Below are positions 21,743-27,225 of a stretch of 64,000 nucleotides of DNA, piece by piece; position 1 is the stretch's first letter; every line of letters starts with the position of its first letter. The notes beneath the pieces are model-generated. The model was not told the origin of the DNA and made no database searches. It saw only the letters and a program-made list of their open reading frames with translations. Source of the stretch: Mogibacterium timidum ATCC 33093 (lineage in GTDB: Bacteria; Bacillota; Clostridia; Peptostreptococcales; Anaerovoracaceae); contig NZ_JALU01000004.1 of assembly GCF_000525775.1 (NCBI RefSeq), positions 62,001 through 126,000 of the forward strand. The letters run 5' to 3'. Position numbers and translations under genes: made by a program.

Positions 21743-22993
21743 TTATATAAGCGAATGTATCTCTCCGTCTAACACCTCGCATGGTGTCATGAAGACAGGC
21801 TTATTATCTTTTTCCCTAGTCGTATATGCACCGAGTATTCCTGCCGGCTGAGCAGGGAACACCGCTGTGTCATACATATTACCGAGGCCTGAACATATCT
21901 TTACAAGACCGAGGCGCATTTTGGATGGTCTGGATGTCATTATGAAATCTTCGGAATGAGAGATTGATGCAGATTTCATTGATTGCCTGATTTCATTTAA
22001 GACACGGTCGGCCATTTCATGTGCTGCCTGTATCCCTTCAGACGTACGACCTTCACCTTCTTCAAATAGAAAATCAAAATGCAGAATTATATCGGTTGAC
22101 CTTGAGGTTCCCGCCTGATCAAAGCAGACACGTTCGTCCAGTATTCCTTCGGATGAGCCTATATTTGCGGGCTGAAAGCCGCTTCCGTATTCAACTCCGT
22201 TTAGCATGACCGAAACGCCTTCAAGCTGTCGAGTAACACCCATACCGATGACACCTTCCTCTTTGCAGGCAATAGGCATGAAGTCGAGGTTGGAATTGAT
22301 ATGAATGTGTTTACTGTCATGCGGCAGCAAGAAACTGATATGGCAATCACGTATACGTGGTTCTGCGGCAACCAAAGGGGCAACGATCTCTGTACGAATT
22401 GTAAGCTTCTCCCCGGTAATCGATGTGTTGTCTCCAAATTGAGCCGTTGATATGCTTATATAATTTCTCCGTAATGAACCTATGATTTTATCTGTTCCAC
22501 TAAGCTCAGACTGACGCTTTTTAAACGCAAATGATTTGCGCACCTTACTCTTGAGTATCTGAATTGCCTTATATGCATCCATATCCGTGAGGTTGTTTTG
22601 CCCAACAACACATGATTCATATCCGGATACTTCCTTATTGAAGTCAATGATTGTCTCTACGTAAGGATTTGTTGCAACGAGTCTTCCTTGAAGGCCAATG
22701 TAACTGAGTCCTACCGAAGGGATATCATGTATTCCGAGCTGTTCAATGACGTTGATAAAATCAATGTGATGGTTCCCCCAACCGTCGATAGCAACTATTG
22801 CGCCGTCGAGTCTCAGTTCAGAACCCAATTCGCCGGTGGAAACGGCAGTCGCCACTTTGGCGTCAAAGTTTTCAGAAACTCCATTTTCAATAATCCCGAC
22901 AAAATCAACTTCTGTGTCATTAATGAGTCTTCGTGTGATAGGACAATTATAATGATGAAGAGTGGTCATCTTGATACTTGGTCCGAGTCCCAT
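21743..22993 (-). CDS. PrdA-like proline-reductase-associated protein with swapped halves (PrdE/PrdD-like fusion)
   Basis: 416 residues. Residues 1 to about 165 resemble the C-terminal (pyruvoyl-subunit) part of PrdA: GLGPSIKM at the start against CIGPATKEM, and DGWGNHHIDF against EGFGNNHIDF. Residues about 175-416 resemble the middle of PrdA: ISISTAQFGDNTSITG against IKITDAKIGNETSIKD, SSEGILDERVCF against SSEGMLDEKMYF, and a C-terminus FMTPCEVLDGEIHSL against MLTPNQVRDGSIHAL. The order is thus reversed relative to PrdA, and the catalytic Cys context is lost. Proline-reductase clusters carry separate small PrdA-like genes, prdD and prdE, of unknown role; this looks like both fused. The start is well placed (AAAGGAGTG). 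Confidence 0.8.
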   Translation of the reverse strand: MGLGPSIKMTTLHHYNCPITRRLINDTEVDFVGIIENGVSENFDAKVATAVSTGELGSELRLDGAIVAIDGWGNHHIDFINVIEQLGIHDIPSVGLSYIGLQGRLVATNPYVETIIDFNKEVSGYESCVVGQNNLTDMDAYKAIQILKSKVRKSFAFKKRQSELSGTDKIIGSLRRNYISISTAQFGDNTSITGEKLTIRTEIVAPLVAAEPRIRDCHISFLLPHDSKHIHINSNLDFMPIACKEEGVIGMGVTRQLEGVSVMLNGVEYGSGFQPANIGSSEGILDERVCFDQAGTSRSTDIILHFDFLFEEGEGRTSEGIQAAHEMADRVLNEIRQSMKSASISHSEDFIMTSRPSKMRLGLVKICSGLGNMYDTAVFPAQPAGILGAYTTREKDNKPVFMTPCEVLDGEIHSLI

Positions 22994-23057
22994 ATTATTT
23001 CACACTCCTTTCAGAATAGCTGAGTCATATAAATCTGATATTTGCAGTTTATCGCAA

Positions 23058-23939
23058 TCATTCTTCTGTATTTTCAAAATATGACTGTACAGCATAGATG
23101 AAAGATCTCGTTATCGGGGTTGCATTATTTAAATTCTTAATTCCGACACCAAGATCTCTTGAACATTGCGGTTCGAGAGGCATAGTGATATATTTACCCG
23201 GTCTTCCTTTGCAAGAAAGCTCAGGTAATACAGCGAGTCCGATGCCCTGTTCCACCATAGACAATATTGTCGCATCATCTCTTGCAGACAGGACAACATT
23301 AGGTTGTGTCTTTGTCTTCTCGAGAAGTCTGTTGATGTCATAATCTACACCTTCTTCTGATAGAATAAAGGGCTTTCCGTTAAATTCATTTACCGGAAAA
23401 CTTGTGGTGCTGTCATGTATATGGTAGTCCGGAGGCAAAACGGCTACTATCGGATCATTAACAAGATGTATAAATTCAAAGGTAAATGTAGAACGTCTGC
23501 TGCAGAATGCGAGATCGACCTCATATTCCGAGATCCATTTCTCCATTTCATCAGAACCGCCCTCTTTAACTGTAATATCAACATTGGGGTGTGCCTCTCG
23601 AAAGCTCTTGATAATCTCCGGGAGAACGGCAGTGGAGACGCTTGTATAGGTTCCAAGTCGGATACTGCCTACCTCAAGGCCGTGAAGGTCATAGATGAAT
23701 TGCTCAAGTCGTTCGTTTTCTGCAAGAAATCTTTTTACATAGAACAGAAAATCCGATCCCAATGAGGTCAGGTGAACGCCGTAACGGTCGCGTTTAAACA
23801 ACTGGATACCGGCTTCTTTTTCCAATGATTTGAGCATATGACTCACAGCAGACTGAGTATATCCGGTCAATTTTGCAGTGCGAGATATTTGTTTGGTCTC
23901 AGCTGTGATGACAAAAACCTTGCATTTTTTTATATCCAT
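23058..23939 (-). CDS. LysR-family transcriptional regulator of the prd locus
   Basis: 293 residues. The N-terminal winged helix-turn-helix is clear (RTAKLTGYTQSAVSHMLKSL, then LFKRDRYGVHLTSLG). The effector domain follows (GSIRLGTYTSVSTAVLPEII, VDLAFCSRR, MVEQGIGLAVLPELS). It is divergent from prdA and upstream of the PrdA-like gene, so it probably controls both arms. Known proline-reductase regulation in Clostridioides difficile uses PrdR, a sigma-54 activator; a LysR protein here is a different arrangement. The start at 23939 (with GGGAG five bases before) is preferred over one 24 bases further upstream. A T-N11-A palindrome lies 67 bases upstream. Confidence 0.9.
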   Translation of the reverse strand: MDIKKCKVFVITAETKQISRTAKLTGYTQSAVSHMLKSLEKEAGIQLFKRDRYGVHLTSLGSDFLFYVKRFLAENERLEQFIYDLHGLEVGSIRLGTYTSVSTAVLPEIIKSFREAHPNVDITVKEGGSDEMEKWISEYEVDLAFCSRRSTFTFEFIHLVNDPIVAVLPPDYHIHDSTTSFPVNEFNGKPFILSEEGVDYDINRLLEKTKTQPNVVLSARDDATILSMVEQGIGLAVLPELSCKGRPGKYITMPLEPQCSRDLGVGIKNLNNATPITRSFIYAVQSYFENTEE

Positions 23940-24005
23940 AATGTCTCCCATTAATAATTTCAATAGCTTTTTGATACATTATCCGCAAATCTGTTGAAAC
24001 GTCAA

Positions 24006-24223: not shown

Positions 24224-26026
24224 ATGTCGATAACAAAGGAAACCGTTCAGGCTCATCTTAAAGACCCTGCAATTTTTTGTTGCCGAAGGGAGAAGGGCCT
24301 AGTTATCAGTGAAAAGGATCTCGAGGATCCGGGACTGTTTGACGACATGATCGATTCCGGTCTGCTTGAACTCTCCGGTGATGGGCTGACAATCGAACAG
24401 GTTCTCGGTTGTACTCTGATGAAGGACTGTGAGGCTCTTGTGCCTATCACAAGAGATGTCCTCGACAGAGTAAACGAGGTGGAGAGTGCACCTACAGGTA
24501 AGAAAGAAACGACTGCTGAAGGAACAGCTTCAGAGAGTAATGTTGCTACAGCACCCGTGTACACTACAACTTCCGGAGGTAATGGAATGATTCATATCGA
24601 AATTGATAAGGCAGAAAATCTATCAGGCCTTAAGCTTGATGTCCCTGTAGTTGCCGGCACTGTCGGTACTGCTTTTGAGGGTGCTCCTGCTACAGAAGTA
24701 CTTGATGGACACAAGAAAGTTATTCGTACGTTGACTAAGAAGCATATTAAGATTACCGATGCTAAAATCGGTAATGAGACATCAATTAAAGACGGCATAA
24801 TCACAATTAACAAAAATATTGTTAAAGAAGCTCTAAAGGCAGATCCGCTCTGCAAAAGCCTGCAGTTGGATGTTATTCACCCAAGTGAGAGACATCAGTA
24901 CACCGAAACTATTATGGATGTTTGCCCAATTGCTGCAAAGGTTGAGGGTAAGCTCGGGGATGGTGTTACAAAGATTGCCGATGGGATTGTATTCATGCTG
25001 ACAGGTGTTGACGAGGACGGGACACAGGTACATGAATTCGGATCATCTGAAGGTATGTTGGATGAAAAAATGTACTTTGGACATCCCGGCTGCGCTGACG
25101 ACGGTGACATAATCATAAGATGCCATGCCGTAATTGAGAGACTTAAGGGAATGTCACGTTCCGGTCCTCTTGCTGCTCATAAGTGCCAGGATGTGATTAT
25201 TCAGGCTGTAAGAGATGAGCTCAAAGCTTATGAAGGTGAAGTGGTTCGTGAAGAAATCTGCGAGGACGTAAGAAGGAGGGGAAATCCAAGAGTCATTCTT
25301 GTAAAAGAAATTATGGGACAGGGTGCTATGCACGATAACGTAATCTGCCCAACCGAGCCTTGCGGAATTCCTGGCGGACGGATGAACGTGGACTGCGGCA
25401 ATGTGCCAATCATGCTGACACCTAACCAGGTAAGAGACGGATCAATACACGCACTGACCTGCATAGGACCGGCTACAAAGGAAATGACCAGGCATTATAT
25501 GCGTGAGCCATTGGTAGAAGGACTTGCAGCAGATGACGAGCTTGATCTGATCGGTGTAATCTTTGTCGGATCTCCTCAGGTAAACGATGAGAAGCTGTGG
25601 GTATCCGAGAGACTTGGTTCAATGTTGGAGTCTCTTGATATTGATGGATGCATCATCACAACTGAGGGATTTGGCAATAACCATATCGACTTTATACAGC
25701 ATATCGGTCAGGCAGGAGAGAGAGAGATTCCTGTAGTTGGAGCTTCATTCTGCGCTTATCAGGGTCAGCTTGTAGTTGGTAATAAGTATGCGACTGCAAT
25801 GGTTGAAGAAAATATGGATAAGGGTGGATTCGAAAACGATATCGCCGGCTGCTCATGCGTGACCAAGGAAGTTGCTGCACGTGCTATCCAGATGCTTAAG
25901 AATCAGATGATGGGTGTCGCTGTAAATGCTGCTCCTAAGAAGTGGAACAATGATGTTATCAACGATAACAATAAACTCCTCGGATTACCAGAGACAGTGC
26001 TTGTAGAAAGCGGAACACTGCACTAA
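24224..26026 (+). CDS. prdA: D-proline reductase proprotein PrdA
   Basis: Proline reductase cleaves the ring of D-proline to 5-aminovalerate, the electron-accepting half of Stickland fermentation. PrdA is made as a proprotein that self-cleaves at a cysteine, leaving a pyruvoyl group on the C-terminal subunit. The protein has 600 residues. The N-terminus (DPAIFCCRREKG, LEDPGLF) and the body (EIMGQGAMHDN, GFGNNHIDF) match the Clostridium sticklandii enzyme as I recall it. The cleavage cysteine is predicted at residue 413 in HALTCIGPATKEM, giving subunits of roughly 44 and 20 kDa. A low-complexity Thr/Ala/Glu linker lies near residues 85-120. The ribosome binding site AAGGAGGCAG is strong. The next gene starts 2 bases after the stop. 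Confidence 0.95.
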   Translation: MSITKETVQAHLKDPAIFCCRREKGLVISEKDLEDPGLFDDMIDSGLLELSGDGLTIEQVLGCTLMKDCEALVPITRDVLDRVNEVESAPTGKKETTAEGTASESNVATAPVYTTTSGGNGMIHIEIDKAENLSGLKLDVPVVAGTVGTAFEGAPATEVLDGHKKVIRTLTKKHIKITDAKIGNETSIKDGIITINKNIVKEALKADPLCKSLQLDVIHPSERHQYTETIMDVCPIAAKVEGKLGDGVTKIADGIVFMLTGVDEDGTQVHEFGSSEGMLDEKMYFGHPGCADDGDIIIRCHAVIERLKGMSRSGPLAAHKCQDVIIQAVRDELKAYEGEVVREEICEDVRRRGNPRVILVKEIMGQGAMHDNVICPTEPCGIPGGRMNVDCGNVPIMLTPNQVRDGSIHALTCIGPATKEMTRHYMREPLVEGLAADDELDLIGVIFVGSPQVNDEKLWVSERLGSMLESLDIDGCIITTEGFGNNHIDFIQHIGQAGEREIPVVGASFCAYQGQLVVGNKYATAMVEENMDKGGFENDIAGCSCVTKEVAARAIQMLKNQMMGVAVNAAPKKWNNDVINDNNKLLGLPETVLVESGTLH

Positions 26027-26028
26027 CT

Positions 26029-26478
26029 ATGGTTGAATATCTGATTAACCCGGTCAAGATGGGGGGCGTTGTCAAAGAAATCTATGACGACGGTAAAATG
26101 GTCAAAATATATCTGAATGGCAGACTCGGTGTAATCAAAGTGCCGCGTTGGCTTATCCGGGGAGATGAATCTCCGGAGCCGGGCTTTAAGCTGGAATTCT
26201 ATTTTAGCTATATACAGATAGTGGACGACCCATATGACTACTCAAGCGATGAAATGAATTCTGCAGAAGAAATGTTTCCATCAATTTTAGGTGGTAAGGT
26301 GATAGATATCAATGATACAGCCACTACTATCGAGGTGATGGATGATATAGGAGAAATAACCGTGCCGGTGAGGTGGATTATTACTTCCAAGAAACCGATG
26401 ATCGGTGATGATGCGGAATTCTATTTCAGTTGCATGGATGTTACAGGCAAAAATGATTTGCCGACAATGTTTATTTAA
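26029..26478 (+). CDS. Small two-repeat protein between prdA and prdB
   Basis: 149 residues made of two tandem beta-rich repeats of about 55 residues. Repeat 1 has GGVVKEIYDDGKMVKIYLNG, IKVPRWLI and LEFYFSYIQIVDD; repeat 2 has GGKVIDINDTATTIEVMDD, ITVPVRWII and AEFYFSCMDVTG. I recall similar small proteins beside proline-reductase genes in other Clostridia (a CBO2463/CBO2479-type domain) but no function. The tight fit between prdA and prdB (2 and 21 bases) implies cotranslation and a role in assembly, maturation or electron delivery to the enzyme (inference). It lacks the cysteine clusters of the electron carrier PrdC. Confidence 0.8.
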   Translation: MVEYLINPVKMGGVVKEIYDDGKMVKIYLNGRLGVIKVPRWLIRGDESPEPGFKLEFYFSYIQIVDDPYDYSSDEMNSAEEMFPSILGGKVIDINDTATTIEVMDDIGEITVPVRWIITSKKPMIGDDAEFYFSCMDVTGKNDLPTMFI

Positions 26479-26499: not shown

Positions 26500-27225
26500 A
26501 TGAAGCTTACAACAGTAGAAGGAATGACCTCGGAGATTTTCGTACCGCTAACTCCGGATCCTGTTTTTACAGAACTCAAGAAGCCTCTGAGTGATTGCAA
26601 GGTTGCATTTATCACAGCAGGAGGAATCCATAATAAGAACCAGACTCCGTTCAACACATCCGGAGACTTTTCTTACAGAACTATTTCGTTCGATACGCCA
26701 AGCAGCGAACTGATGGTAACACATGGAGGGTTTGACAACTCCGACATCAACAAGGATGTTAATGCGATGTTTCCTATAGACAGACTTCATGAGCTCGTTG
26801 CTGAAGGATTTATCGGATCACTTCCGGAAGAGACGTATACGTTCATGGGCGGCGGCGGAAACGTTGAGAAGTTCAGAGATGAGACAGGTCCTGAGATTGC
26901 AAGGAAGCTCAAGGCTCAGGGTGTGGATGTTGTACTGTGCACCGGCGGCTGCGGGACATGCCACAGATCTGCTACAATTGTAACAAGAGCTTGCGAGGCT
27001 GAAGGAATGAGCTGTTGCGTTATTGCGGCGCTCCCACCTATAGCTCGTCAACAGGGGGCTCCTAGAATCACTGCTCCTCATGTTCCAATCGGTTCAAATG
27101 CCGGGGAGCCTAACAATAAGGAGATGCAGACAGCTATCCTCAAAGAGTCTCTCGAGTGGGTGAGAGATTGTCCACAGTTCAATGGACTCAAGGTGCTTCC
27201 ATACGAGTACAGACATAATGTTTAA
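26500..27225 (+). CDS. prdB: D-proline reductase subunit PrdB, cysteine form
   Basis: 241 residues. PrdB carries the redox-active residue that attacks the proline ring; in Clostridium sticklandii it is selenocysteine in a UGTC motif. Here the equivalent reads CTGGCGTCHR, with TGC at 26950-26952 (Cys151) in place of the UGA codon and Cys154 conserved. The rest is typical: MTSEIFVPLTPDPVFTELKK at the start, HGGFDNSDINKDVNAMFPID, FMGGGGN and SNAGEPNNKEMQ. It is the last gene of the prdA operon, with ribosome binding site TAGGAGGAAA, followed by a small hairpin and a strong terminator. Confidence 0.95.
   Translation: MKLTTVEGMTSEIFVPLTPDPVFTELKKPLSDCKVAFITAGGIHNKNQTPFNTSGDFSYRTISFDTPSSELMVTHGGFDNSDINKDVNAMFPIDRLHELVAEGFIGSLPEETYTFMGGGGNVEKFRDETGPEIARKLKAQGVDVVLCTGGCGTCHRSATIVTRACEAEGMSCCVIAALPPIARQQGAPRITAPHVPIGSNAGEPNNKEMQTAILKESLEWVRDCPQFNGLKVLPYEYRHNV

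What the first reader, a model, noticed from the sequence alone, without database searches (positions are those of the whole stretch)
21743..22993. PrdA-like protein built from the two PrdA subunits in reversed order
The first 165 residues match the PrdA pyruvoyl subunit, and the remaining 240 match the PrdA middle/beta region. The protein starts essentially where PrdA is cleaved (GLGPSIKM against CIGPATKEM) and ends where the N-terminal PrdA subunit ends (LDGEIHSL against RDGSIHAL). PrdA's first 165 residues and the catalytic Cys are missing. Known clusters have separate prdD and prdE genes of unknown role; a fusion in swapped order, beginning exactly at the processing point, implies that it mimics the processed heterodimer, perhaps as scaffold, chaperone or decoy subunit.
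Basis: partly seen in the sequence, partly recalled or inferred. Interest (0 to 1): 0.72.

Follow-up and report, generated by a model that had tools for sequence, protein, structure and literature searches.

The report
Pre-cut, cofactor-less PrdA mimic (PrdE–PrdD fusion)
This gene joins two accessory proteins of proline reductase, PrdE and PrdD, into one protein shaped like the cut form of the main enzyme but without its reactive group; it nearly always goes with a version of the enzyme that uses ordinary cysteine instead of selenocysteine, which offers a way to find out what these accessory proteins do.

Summary
Window 21743-22993 (-) encodes a 416-aa protein whose N half aligns to the PrdA pyruvoyl subunit and whose C half aligns to PrdA's middle region: a circular permutant opened exactly at PrdA's self-cleavage bond. 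After the initiator Met comes Gly2, where PrdA has the Cys that becomes pyruvoyl. It was not cut freshly from PrdA: in trees its halves group with the known stand-alone accessory proteins PrdE and PrdD (support 100), and the fusions form one group. It is a conserved PrdE–PrdD fusion in Bacillota; this genome also has a canonical cluster with separate prdD and prdE. New here: the fusion marks a cysteine-type proline reductase operon. In two sampled surveys, 14 of 16 genomes with Cys-PrdB carry it, against 0 of 105 with only Sec-PrdB. Exceptions: three Anaerococcus genomes pair the fusion with a Sec reductase lacking PrdD/E, so it probably replaces them; two near-complete Cys genomes have no PrdD/E at all, so it is dispensable. 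Most likely it is a non-catalytic pseudo-subunit that stabilises or activates PrdA/PrdB; that mechanism is inferred, not shown.

The parts
21743..22993 (-). PrdE–PrdD fusion gene, 416 aa
   Evidence: full-length relatives
22529..22993 (-). N half (residues 1-155): PrdE-like / PrdA pyruvoyl-subunit-like; M1-G2-L-G-P, Gly2 at the place of PrdA Cys413
21746..22498 (-). C half (residues 166-416): PrdD-like / PrdA beta-like; its last residue aligns with the one before the scissile bond
23005..23011 (-). Likely ribosome-binding site AAAGGAG of the fusion
23058..23963 (-). LysR-type regulator upstream of the fusion on the same strand (64 bp gap; start codon uncertain); best NCBIfam model is the selenium-metabolism LysR (155 bits, below its cut-off of 250)
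24224..26026 (+). prdA, 600 aa, of the clade found with Cys-PrdB; keeps T-C-I-G-P (Cys413 codon 25460-25462)
26029..26478 (+). CBO2463/CBO2479-domain protein, 149 aa
   Evidence: NF041553, 131 bits, cut-off 50
26500..27225 (+). prdB with Cys (TGC, 26950-26952) at the selenocysteine position

Best explanation
The protein is a PrdE–PrdD fusion: a cofactor-less, pre-cut copy of the mature PrdA heterodimer. Shown: homology, order, exact termini, Gly in place of the pyruvoyl Cys, a single group of fusions, and linkage with a Cys-type prd operon. Inferred: Met1 is removed, so that Gly2 becomes the N-terminus where active PrdA carries pyruvoyl. The folded pseudo-heterodimer then joins PrdA/PrdB as a non-catalytic subunit that stabilises or activates them, much as a dead paralogue activates S-adenosylmethionine decarboxylase in trypanosomes. 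The E-then-D order keeps both termini free at the pseudo-active site, as in processed PrdA; a D-then-E fusion would restore the uncut bond. Joining the two parts fixes their 1:1 ratio. In the Cys-type reductase it fills the place that separate PrdD and PrdE fill beside the Sec-type reductase.
For: Trees: fusion N half + PrdE split from PrdA alpha with support 100; fusion C half + PrdD split from PrdA beta with 100; fusions are one group in both (95, 99) (quick method, SH-aLRT only). Termini: MG[IV]GPSTK in 22 of 22 different PrdE frames, picked without requiring the Gly; TCI in 50 of 50 PrdA rows, picked by a pattern that allowed C, S, A or T, one partial frame dropped; Gly at that place in 27 of 28 fusion rows. 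Eight columns of the N half (one of them the initiator Met) are near-fixed in PrdA and near-fixed but different in both PrdE and fusion, so this site is remodelled and kept, not decayed. Place: in 23 of 28 fusion genomes it lies in one locus with window-type PrdA and Cys-PrdB, in 18 of the 23 directly after prdB, the place of prdD-prdE in canonical clusters (canonical: 12, 42). Association: Cys-PrdB in 10 and the fusion in the same 10 of 393 order genomes; with the class sample 14 of 16 Cys genomes against 0 of 105 Sec-only genomes. Replacement: three Anaerococcus genomes have Sec-PrdB, a PrdA and the fusion but no separate PrdD/E at E <= 1e-8. AlphaFold2 model of the fusion: pLDDT 88.5, pTM 0.89, with the joint (151-170) at 89-90.
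Against: No interaction was tested. G806 and G828 (99% complete) have Cys-type PrdA/PrdB and no PrdD, PrdE or fusion, and PMC3091704 (passage) says that the second prd set of C. botulinum lacks PrdD and PrdE: no essential role. G121 (71% complete) has Cys-PrdB and no fusion. Residues 1-5 of the model have pLDDT under 50. The own-genome C5 locus has PrdA and Sec-PrdB without its own PrdD/E. Mediterraneibacter L069/L070 carry the fusion with no prd gene in the locus, and G504 gave no PrdA or PrdB at all. The Cys association rests on one operon lineage (Cys-PrdB one group), not on repeated events.
Confidence: 0.55

Rival explanations
1. Maturation factor: the fusion (like PrdD/PrdE) transiently binds the PrdA proprotein and helps it fold or cut itself, and is not part of the finished enzyme.
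For: It has the domain make-up of the product of cleavage and conserved residues at the former active site. Recalled, not tested here: purified C. sticklandii reductase is described with PrdA and PrdB chains only.
Against: Two near-complete genomes have PrdA/PrdB without any PrdD/E. PMC3091704 cites a paper on in-vitro processing of the PrdA proprotein (reference title seen only).
Confidence: 0.22
2. Regulator: the fusion keeps a proline pocket and senses proline for the adjacent LysR or for the reductase, without being an enzyme subunit.
For: Same strand as and 64 bp from the LysR gene here, same strand and next to a LysR in L052; residues at the former active site are kept.
Against: In 21 of 23 linked loci it is not beside the LysR in this way but runs with the prd genes; the Pfam scan found no DNA-binding domain.
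Confidence: 0.1
3. Active enzyme with other chemistry at its free N-terminal Gly.
For: Gly2 and neighbours strongly conserved.
Against: No Cys or Ser at that place to form pyruvoyl, except one diverged Anaerococcus copy that starts M-S; 27 of 28 fusion genomes also have a PrdA.
Confidence: 0.05
4. Recent chimera or assembly error made from pieces of PrdA.
For: Both halves are alignable to PrdA.
Against: 28 distinct assemblies with the same order, one group in both half-trees, nearer to PrdE/PrdD than to PrdA.
Confidence: 0.01

Closest known systems
PrdD (TIGR04482) and PrdE of canonical D-proline reductase clusters
   Same: Same halves, same start (MGxGPS) and same end at the scissile bond, same operon place after prdB.
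   Different: Separate genes in D-E order with Sec-PrdB; here fused in E-D order, a separate group in the trees, with Cys-PrdB.
PrdA (TIGR04480), D-proline reductase proprotein
   Same: Same two domains; 18 near-fixed residues shared in the N half and 29 in the C half.
   Different: Permuted; no N-terminal domain; Gly instead of Cys; below the PrdA cut-off.
Component B subunits of glycine/sarcosine/betaine reductase (PF09338; GrdG NF040793)
   Same: Same superfamily: the fusion passes PF09338 with 66.8 bits; N half matches positions 246-339 of 426.
   Different: Distant: 35 bits to NF040793, cut-off 780. Normal order and self-cleavage of GrdE/GrdG are recalled or from PMC9908766 (passages), not tested here.
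Trypanosoma AdoMetDC prozyme (PMC5201418, abstract seen)
   Same: Inactive paralogue of a pyruvoyl enzyme that activates it by forming a heterodimer: the working model.
   Different: Analogy only; no sequence relation was looked for, and it is not described there as pre-cut or permuted.

Membership tests
PrdD/PrdE accessory proteins | C half groups with PrdD apart from PrdA | tested here: met
   Split with support 100, 96 rows
PrdD/PrdE accessory proteins | N half groups with PrdE apart from PrdA | tested here: met
   Split with support 100, 99 rows
PrdD/PrdE accessory proteins | Reaches the curated PrdD score (TIGR04482, 320 bits) | tested here: not met
   188.4 bits: a neighbour group of PrdD, not PrdD by this model
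PrdD/PrdE accessory proteins | Starts and ends at PrdA's scissile bond | tested here: met
PrdA | Catalytic Cys that becomes pyruvoyl | tested here: not met
   Gly2; 27 of 28 fusion rows have Gly, 50 of 50 PrdA rows have Cys
PrdA | Beta-then-alpha order and curated score 700 | tested here: not met
   298.5 bits in two stretches, order reversed
Cysteine-type D-proline reductase operon | PrdB above its cut-off with Cys at the Sec codon | tested here: met
   TIGR04483 450 bits (cut-off 300), TGC at 26950
Cysteine-type D-proline reductase operon | Reduces D-proline without selenium | not testable with these tools
   Indirect: G490 (a MAG) and G492 have Cys-PrdB only and no SelB over the cut-off
Prozyme-like activator | Binds and activates the active paralogue | not testable with these tools
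   No complex prediction or assay available

The most novel reading that the evidence does not exclude
The fusion is a prozyme: a pre-cut pseudo-heterodimer that joins PrdA and switches on a proline reductase whose cysteine is weaker than selenocysteine, with the fixed 1:1 E–D ratio being what the Cys enzyme needs. It would be a circularly permuted, cofactor-less activator of a pyruvoyl enzyme, a kind I know no example of, and would explain PrdD and PrdE in general.
Probability: 0.17. Interest if true: 0.75.

Novelty: new variant of a known kind. Interest (0 to 1): 0.5.

Why it matters
The only role I found proposed for PrdD and PrdE is an indirect, stabilising one (PMC3091704, passages). A single-gene version that begins and ends at the self-cleavage bond, natural genomes with and without it (G806, G828), and a natural partner exchange (Anaerococcus) make that role testable with one gene. 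It also marks a Cys-type proline reductase operon that may let organisms without selenocysteine machinery run this Stickland reaction. In the one annotated record seen, the protein is named only 'glycine/sarcosine/betaine reductase component B subunit'.

Tried and rejected
Recent chimera of PrdA pieces: rejected by the trees. Fusion strictly tied to Cys-PrdB: it first looked perfect (10 of 10), but Anaerococcus, G806 and G828 and, in the family sample, G121 (71% complete) are exceptions. Normal-order D–E fusion suspected in L110: it is two genes. The PrdA structure prediction gave no usable model (pLDDT 53.5), so the planned comparison with the fusion was not made; no coordinates were available for measuring the distance between termini. 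Fold searches: no Foldseek match at E <= 0.001; best VIA-align Z 7.1 (2yxb, rmsd 3.6, 122 aligned), which may be only a common arrangement. No PDB sequence relative of the fusion at E <= 1, and for PrdA only a ribosomal protein at E 0.83. A printed report of the fusion was sought: none seen in listings or in passages of the papers opened (PMC9908766, PMC13188914, PMC2398784, PMC3091704, PMC10838667, PMC10298544, PMC1088965). Of the 7 papers that name PrdD and PrdE, only PMC3091704 was opened; subscription papers are not in the library.

Full report
What is there. ORF 21743-22993 on the minus strand gives 416 residues, with a good ribosome-binding site before its ATG. Its first part aligns to residues 414-587 of the window's PrdA and its second part to 140-411 (34% and 32% identity). 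The order is the reverse of PrdA. PrdA is cut between T412 and C413; the fusion ends at the residue aligned with T412 and begins, after Met, at the residue aligned with C413, which is Gly. The protein is therefore a circular permutant opened exactly at the self-cleavage bond, without the cofactor residue. That PrdA is cut there and carries a Cys-derived pyruvoyl group comes from the literature (PMC9908766 and PMC3091704, passages) and the aligned T-C-I-G-P motif.

What it is related to. NCBIfam scores it below the cut-offs of both PrdA and PrdD. The same genome holds three prd loci: the window locus; a canonical one on contig C27 with racemase, prdC, prdA, Sec-prdB, separate prdD (257 aa) and prdE (160 aa); and one on C5 with a short PrdA, Sec-prdB and no prdD/E. 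I built one tree for each half. In the N-half tree (99 rows: 28 fusion, 21 PrdE, 50 PrdA) fusion + PrdE stand apart from PrdA with support 100; in the C-half tree (96 rows: 28 fusion, 18 PrdD, 50 PrdA) fusion + PrdD stand apart with 100. The fusions form one group in both (95 and 99), PrdE 87, PrdD 92. These are quick trees with one support measure; several fusion rows are long, two pairs of long rows meet in the C-half tree, and the root is not known, so whether fusion or fission came first is open. The 28 rows are different sequences (two from one genome), not the 28 genomes counted below. Separate PrdE already starts M-G-[IV]-G-P in 22 of 22 different frames. Pre-cutting is thus a property of PrdD/PrdE in general; the fusion adds the covalent E–D link. 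That PrdD and PrdE resemble the middle and C-terminal parts of PrdA was known (PMC3091704, passages).

How widespread. The family sample (296 genomes) has 31 with any match at E <= 1e-10; 30 of the 31 have separate D-type and E-type frames and 2 of the 31 (own, G217) the fusion; no other fused D/E frame is in that list. At E <= 1e-45 the fusion occurs in 10 of 393 order genomes and 8 of 391 class genomes, and 19 loci of genome contigs hold it, among them Peptoniphilus, Aedoeadaptatus, Anaerococcus, Peptostreptococcus, Gemella, Lachnoanaerobaculum, Anaeroglobus and Mediterraneibacter. Removing overlaps by equal contig length or coordinates leaves 28 assemblies. A 29th, Enterococcus gilvus plasmid pCR1A, has it beside prdC, prdA, CBO2463 and Cys-prdB; it is the one single-piece match among the 20 rows listed of 22 plasmid records.

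The operon. In 23 of the 28 assemblies the fusion shares a locus with window-type PrdA and Cys-PrdB. In 18 of these 23 it directly follows prdB; in 3 (L057, L058, G430) it lies before prdC/prdA; in 2 (window, L052) it lies on the other strand beyond the LysR gene. In 14 loci (L052-L063, L066, L067) PrdB is 83-92% identical to the window's, 92% in Anaeroglobus, while the fusion is 49-57%; in a more distant group (L123-L127) the figures are 68-71% and 38-41%. This fits sideways transfer of the operon and faster change of the fusion (inference).

Selenium. Each PrdB read beside a linked fusion has TGC or TGT where each PrdB read beside separate PrdD/E has TGA. Order sample: 108 of 393 genomes have PrdB at E <= 1e-50; Cys-PrdB in 10, the same 10 that have the fusion; all 10 also have a Sec-PrdB; fusion in 0 of 98 Sec-only genomes (the two searches drew the same number of genomes with the same handles, and I take the draw to be the same). 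Class sample: 22 of 391 have PrdB, 10 with Cys-PrdB, 8 of these with the fusion. Together, as distinct genomes: 14 of 16 Cys genomes have the fusion, 0 of 105 Sec-only ones. Of 18 fusion genomes behind genome-contig loci, 11 have both PrdB kinds, 3 only Cys, 3 only Sec, 1 none. SelB passes its cut-off in 17 of 19 genomes tested; the two without, G490 (a MAG) and G492, have Cys-PrdB only. In the 11 genomes with both kinds the Sec cluster has a separate PrdD in 11 and PrdE beside it in 8; in the other 3 a PrdE lies in the Cys cluster. Enterococcus shows the contrast inside one genus: E. gilvus fusion with Cys, E. raffinosus separate D/E with Sec. Cys-PrdB is one group (24 rows against 20, support 100), so this is one operon inherited and exchanged, not many independent events.

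Exceptions that teach. Three Anaerococcus genomes have Sec-PrdB with a PrdA nearest to the canonical one, no separate PrdD/E, and the fusion 9-10 kb away between a cysteine-desulfurase-like gene and selA-selB (the sel and desulfurase names are my reading of the sequences, SelB alone being confirmed). The simplest reading is that the fusion replaced PrdD and PrdE there, so it does their job for a Sec enzyme too. G806 and G828, both 99% complete, keep LysR, PrdC, PrdA, CBO2463, Cys-PrdB and racemase but have no PrdD, PrdE or fusion at E <= 1e-8, so the job is not indispensable.

Mechanism. The E-type site is not eroded: eight columns are near-fixed in PrdA and near-fixed differently in both PrdE and fusions, among them C413 to G2, Y425 to H14, E481 to D70 and F483 to W72 (one of the eight is the initiator Met), while G4-P5, K8, H13, G73-N74 and D78 are shared. 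The AlphaFold2 model of the fusion is confident (pLDDT 88.5, pTM 0.89; residues 1-5 under 50). I take the protein to be a non-catalytic pseudo-heterodimer that assembles with PrdA/PrdB and stabilises or activates them. The prozyme of trypanosomal AdoMetDC is a precedent for the principle (PMC5201418, abstract). Binding, activation and Met removal are inferred.

Novelty. Known: homology of PrdD/PrdE to PrdA; Cys homologues of PrdB (tables in PMC1088965 and PMC2398784, passages). I found no mention of the fusion, its order, or its tie to Cys-PrdB (searches; most listed papers were not opened). I rate it a new variant of a known kind.

Noticed in passing
L010 6577-9018 (own genome contig C5): Third PrdA paralogue, 503 aa, without the N-terminal region, with Sec-PrdB, LysR, TauE-type permease and racemase but no PrdD/E; substrate unknown.
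   Followed up: partly
L064, L065 and L068 around the fusion: Fusion gene sits inside what reads as the selenium gene cluster of Anaerococcus; A. octavius (L068 6648-7889) has a second, diverged copy whose start lacks the Gly.
   Followed up: partly
L109 4508-4939, L101 11000-11413, L112 7488-7901, L125 1977-2396: tblastn matches to PrdA's N-terminal 133-139 residues alone, just upstream of prdA: perhaps a third free-standing piece of PrdA.
   Followed up: no
L069 7607-8857 and L070 5213-6463: Mediterraneibacter fusions with no prd gene in the locus; in one genome (G503) the Cys prd cluster lies on another contig (L115).
   Followed up: partly
window 23058-23963: LysR gene resembling the selenium-metabolism LysR model below its cut-off; LysR genes also precede several other Cys prd operons. 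May switch between Sec and Cys reductases.
   Followed up: no
L135 (Terrisporobacter petrolearius plasmid pTPHSE2) and L133 (L. salivarius pMP1046A): A 21.7 kb plasmid carries prdC, prdD, a PrdE-type gene, selA, selB and selD; the L. salivarius megaplasmid carries prd genes with yedF, selB and selA.
   Followed up: no
window 26029-26478: CBO2463-domain protein between prdA and prdB in many Cys operons, also beside Sec-PrdB in Enterococcus raffinosus and L. salivarius; role unknown.
   Followed up: no
L062 7998-8000: Gemella cuniculi fusion reads AAT where others have ATG; possible sequencing error or other start.
   Followed up: no
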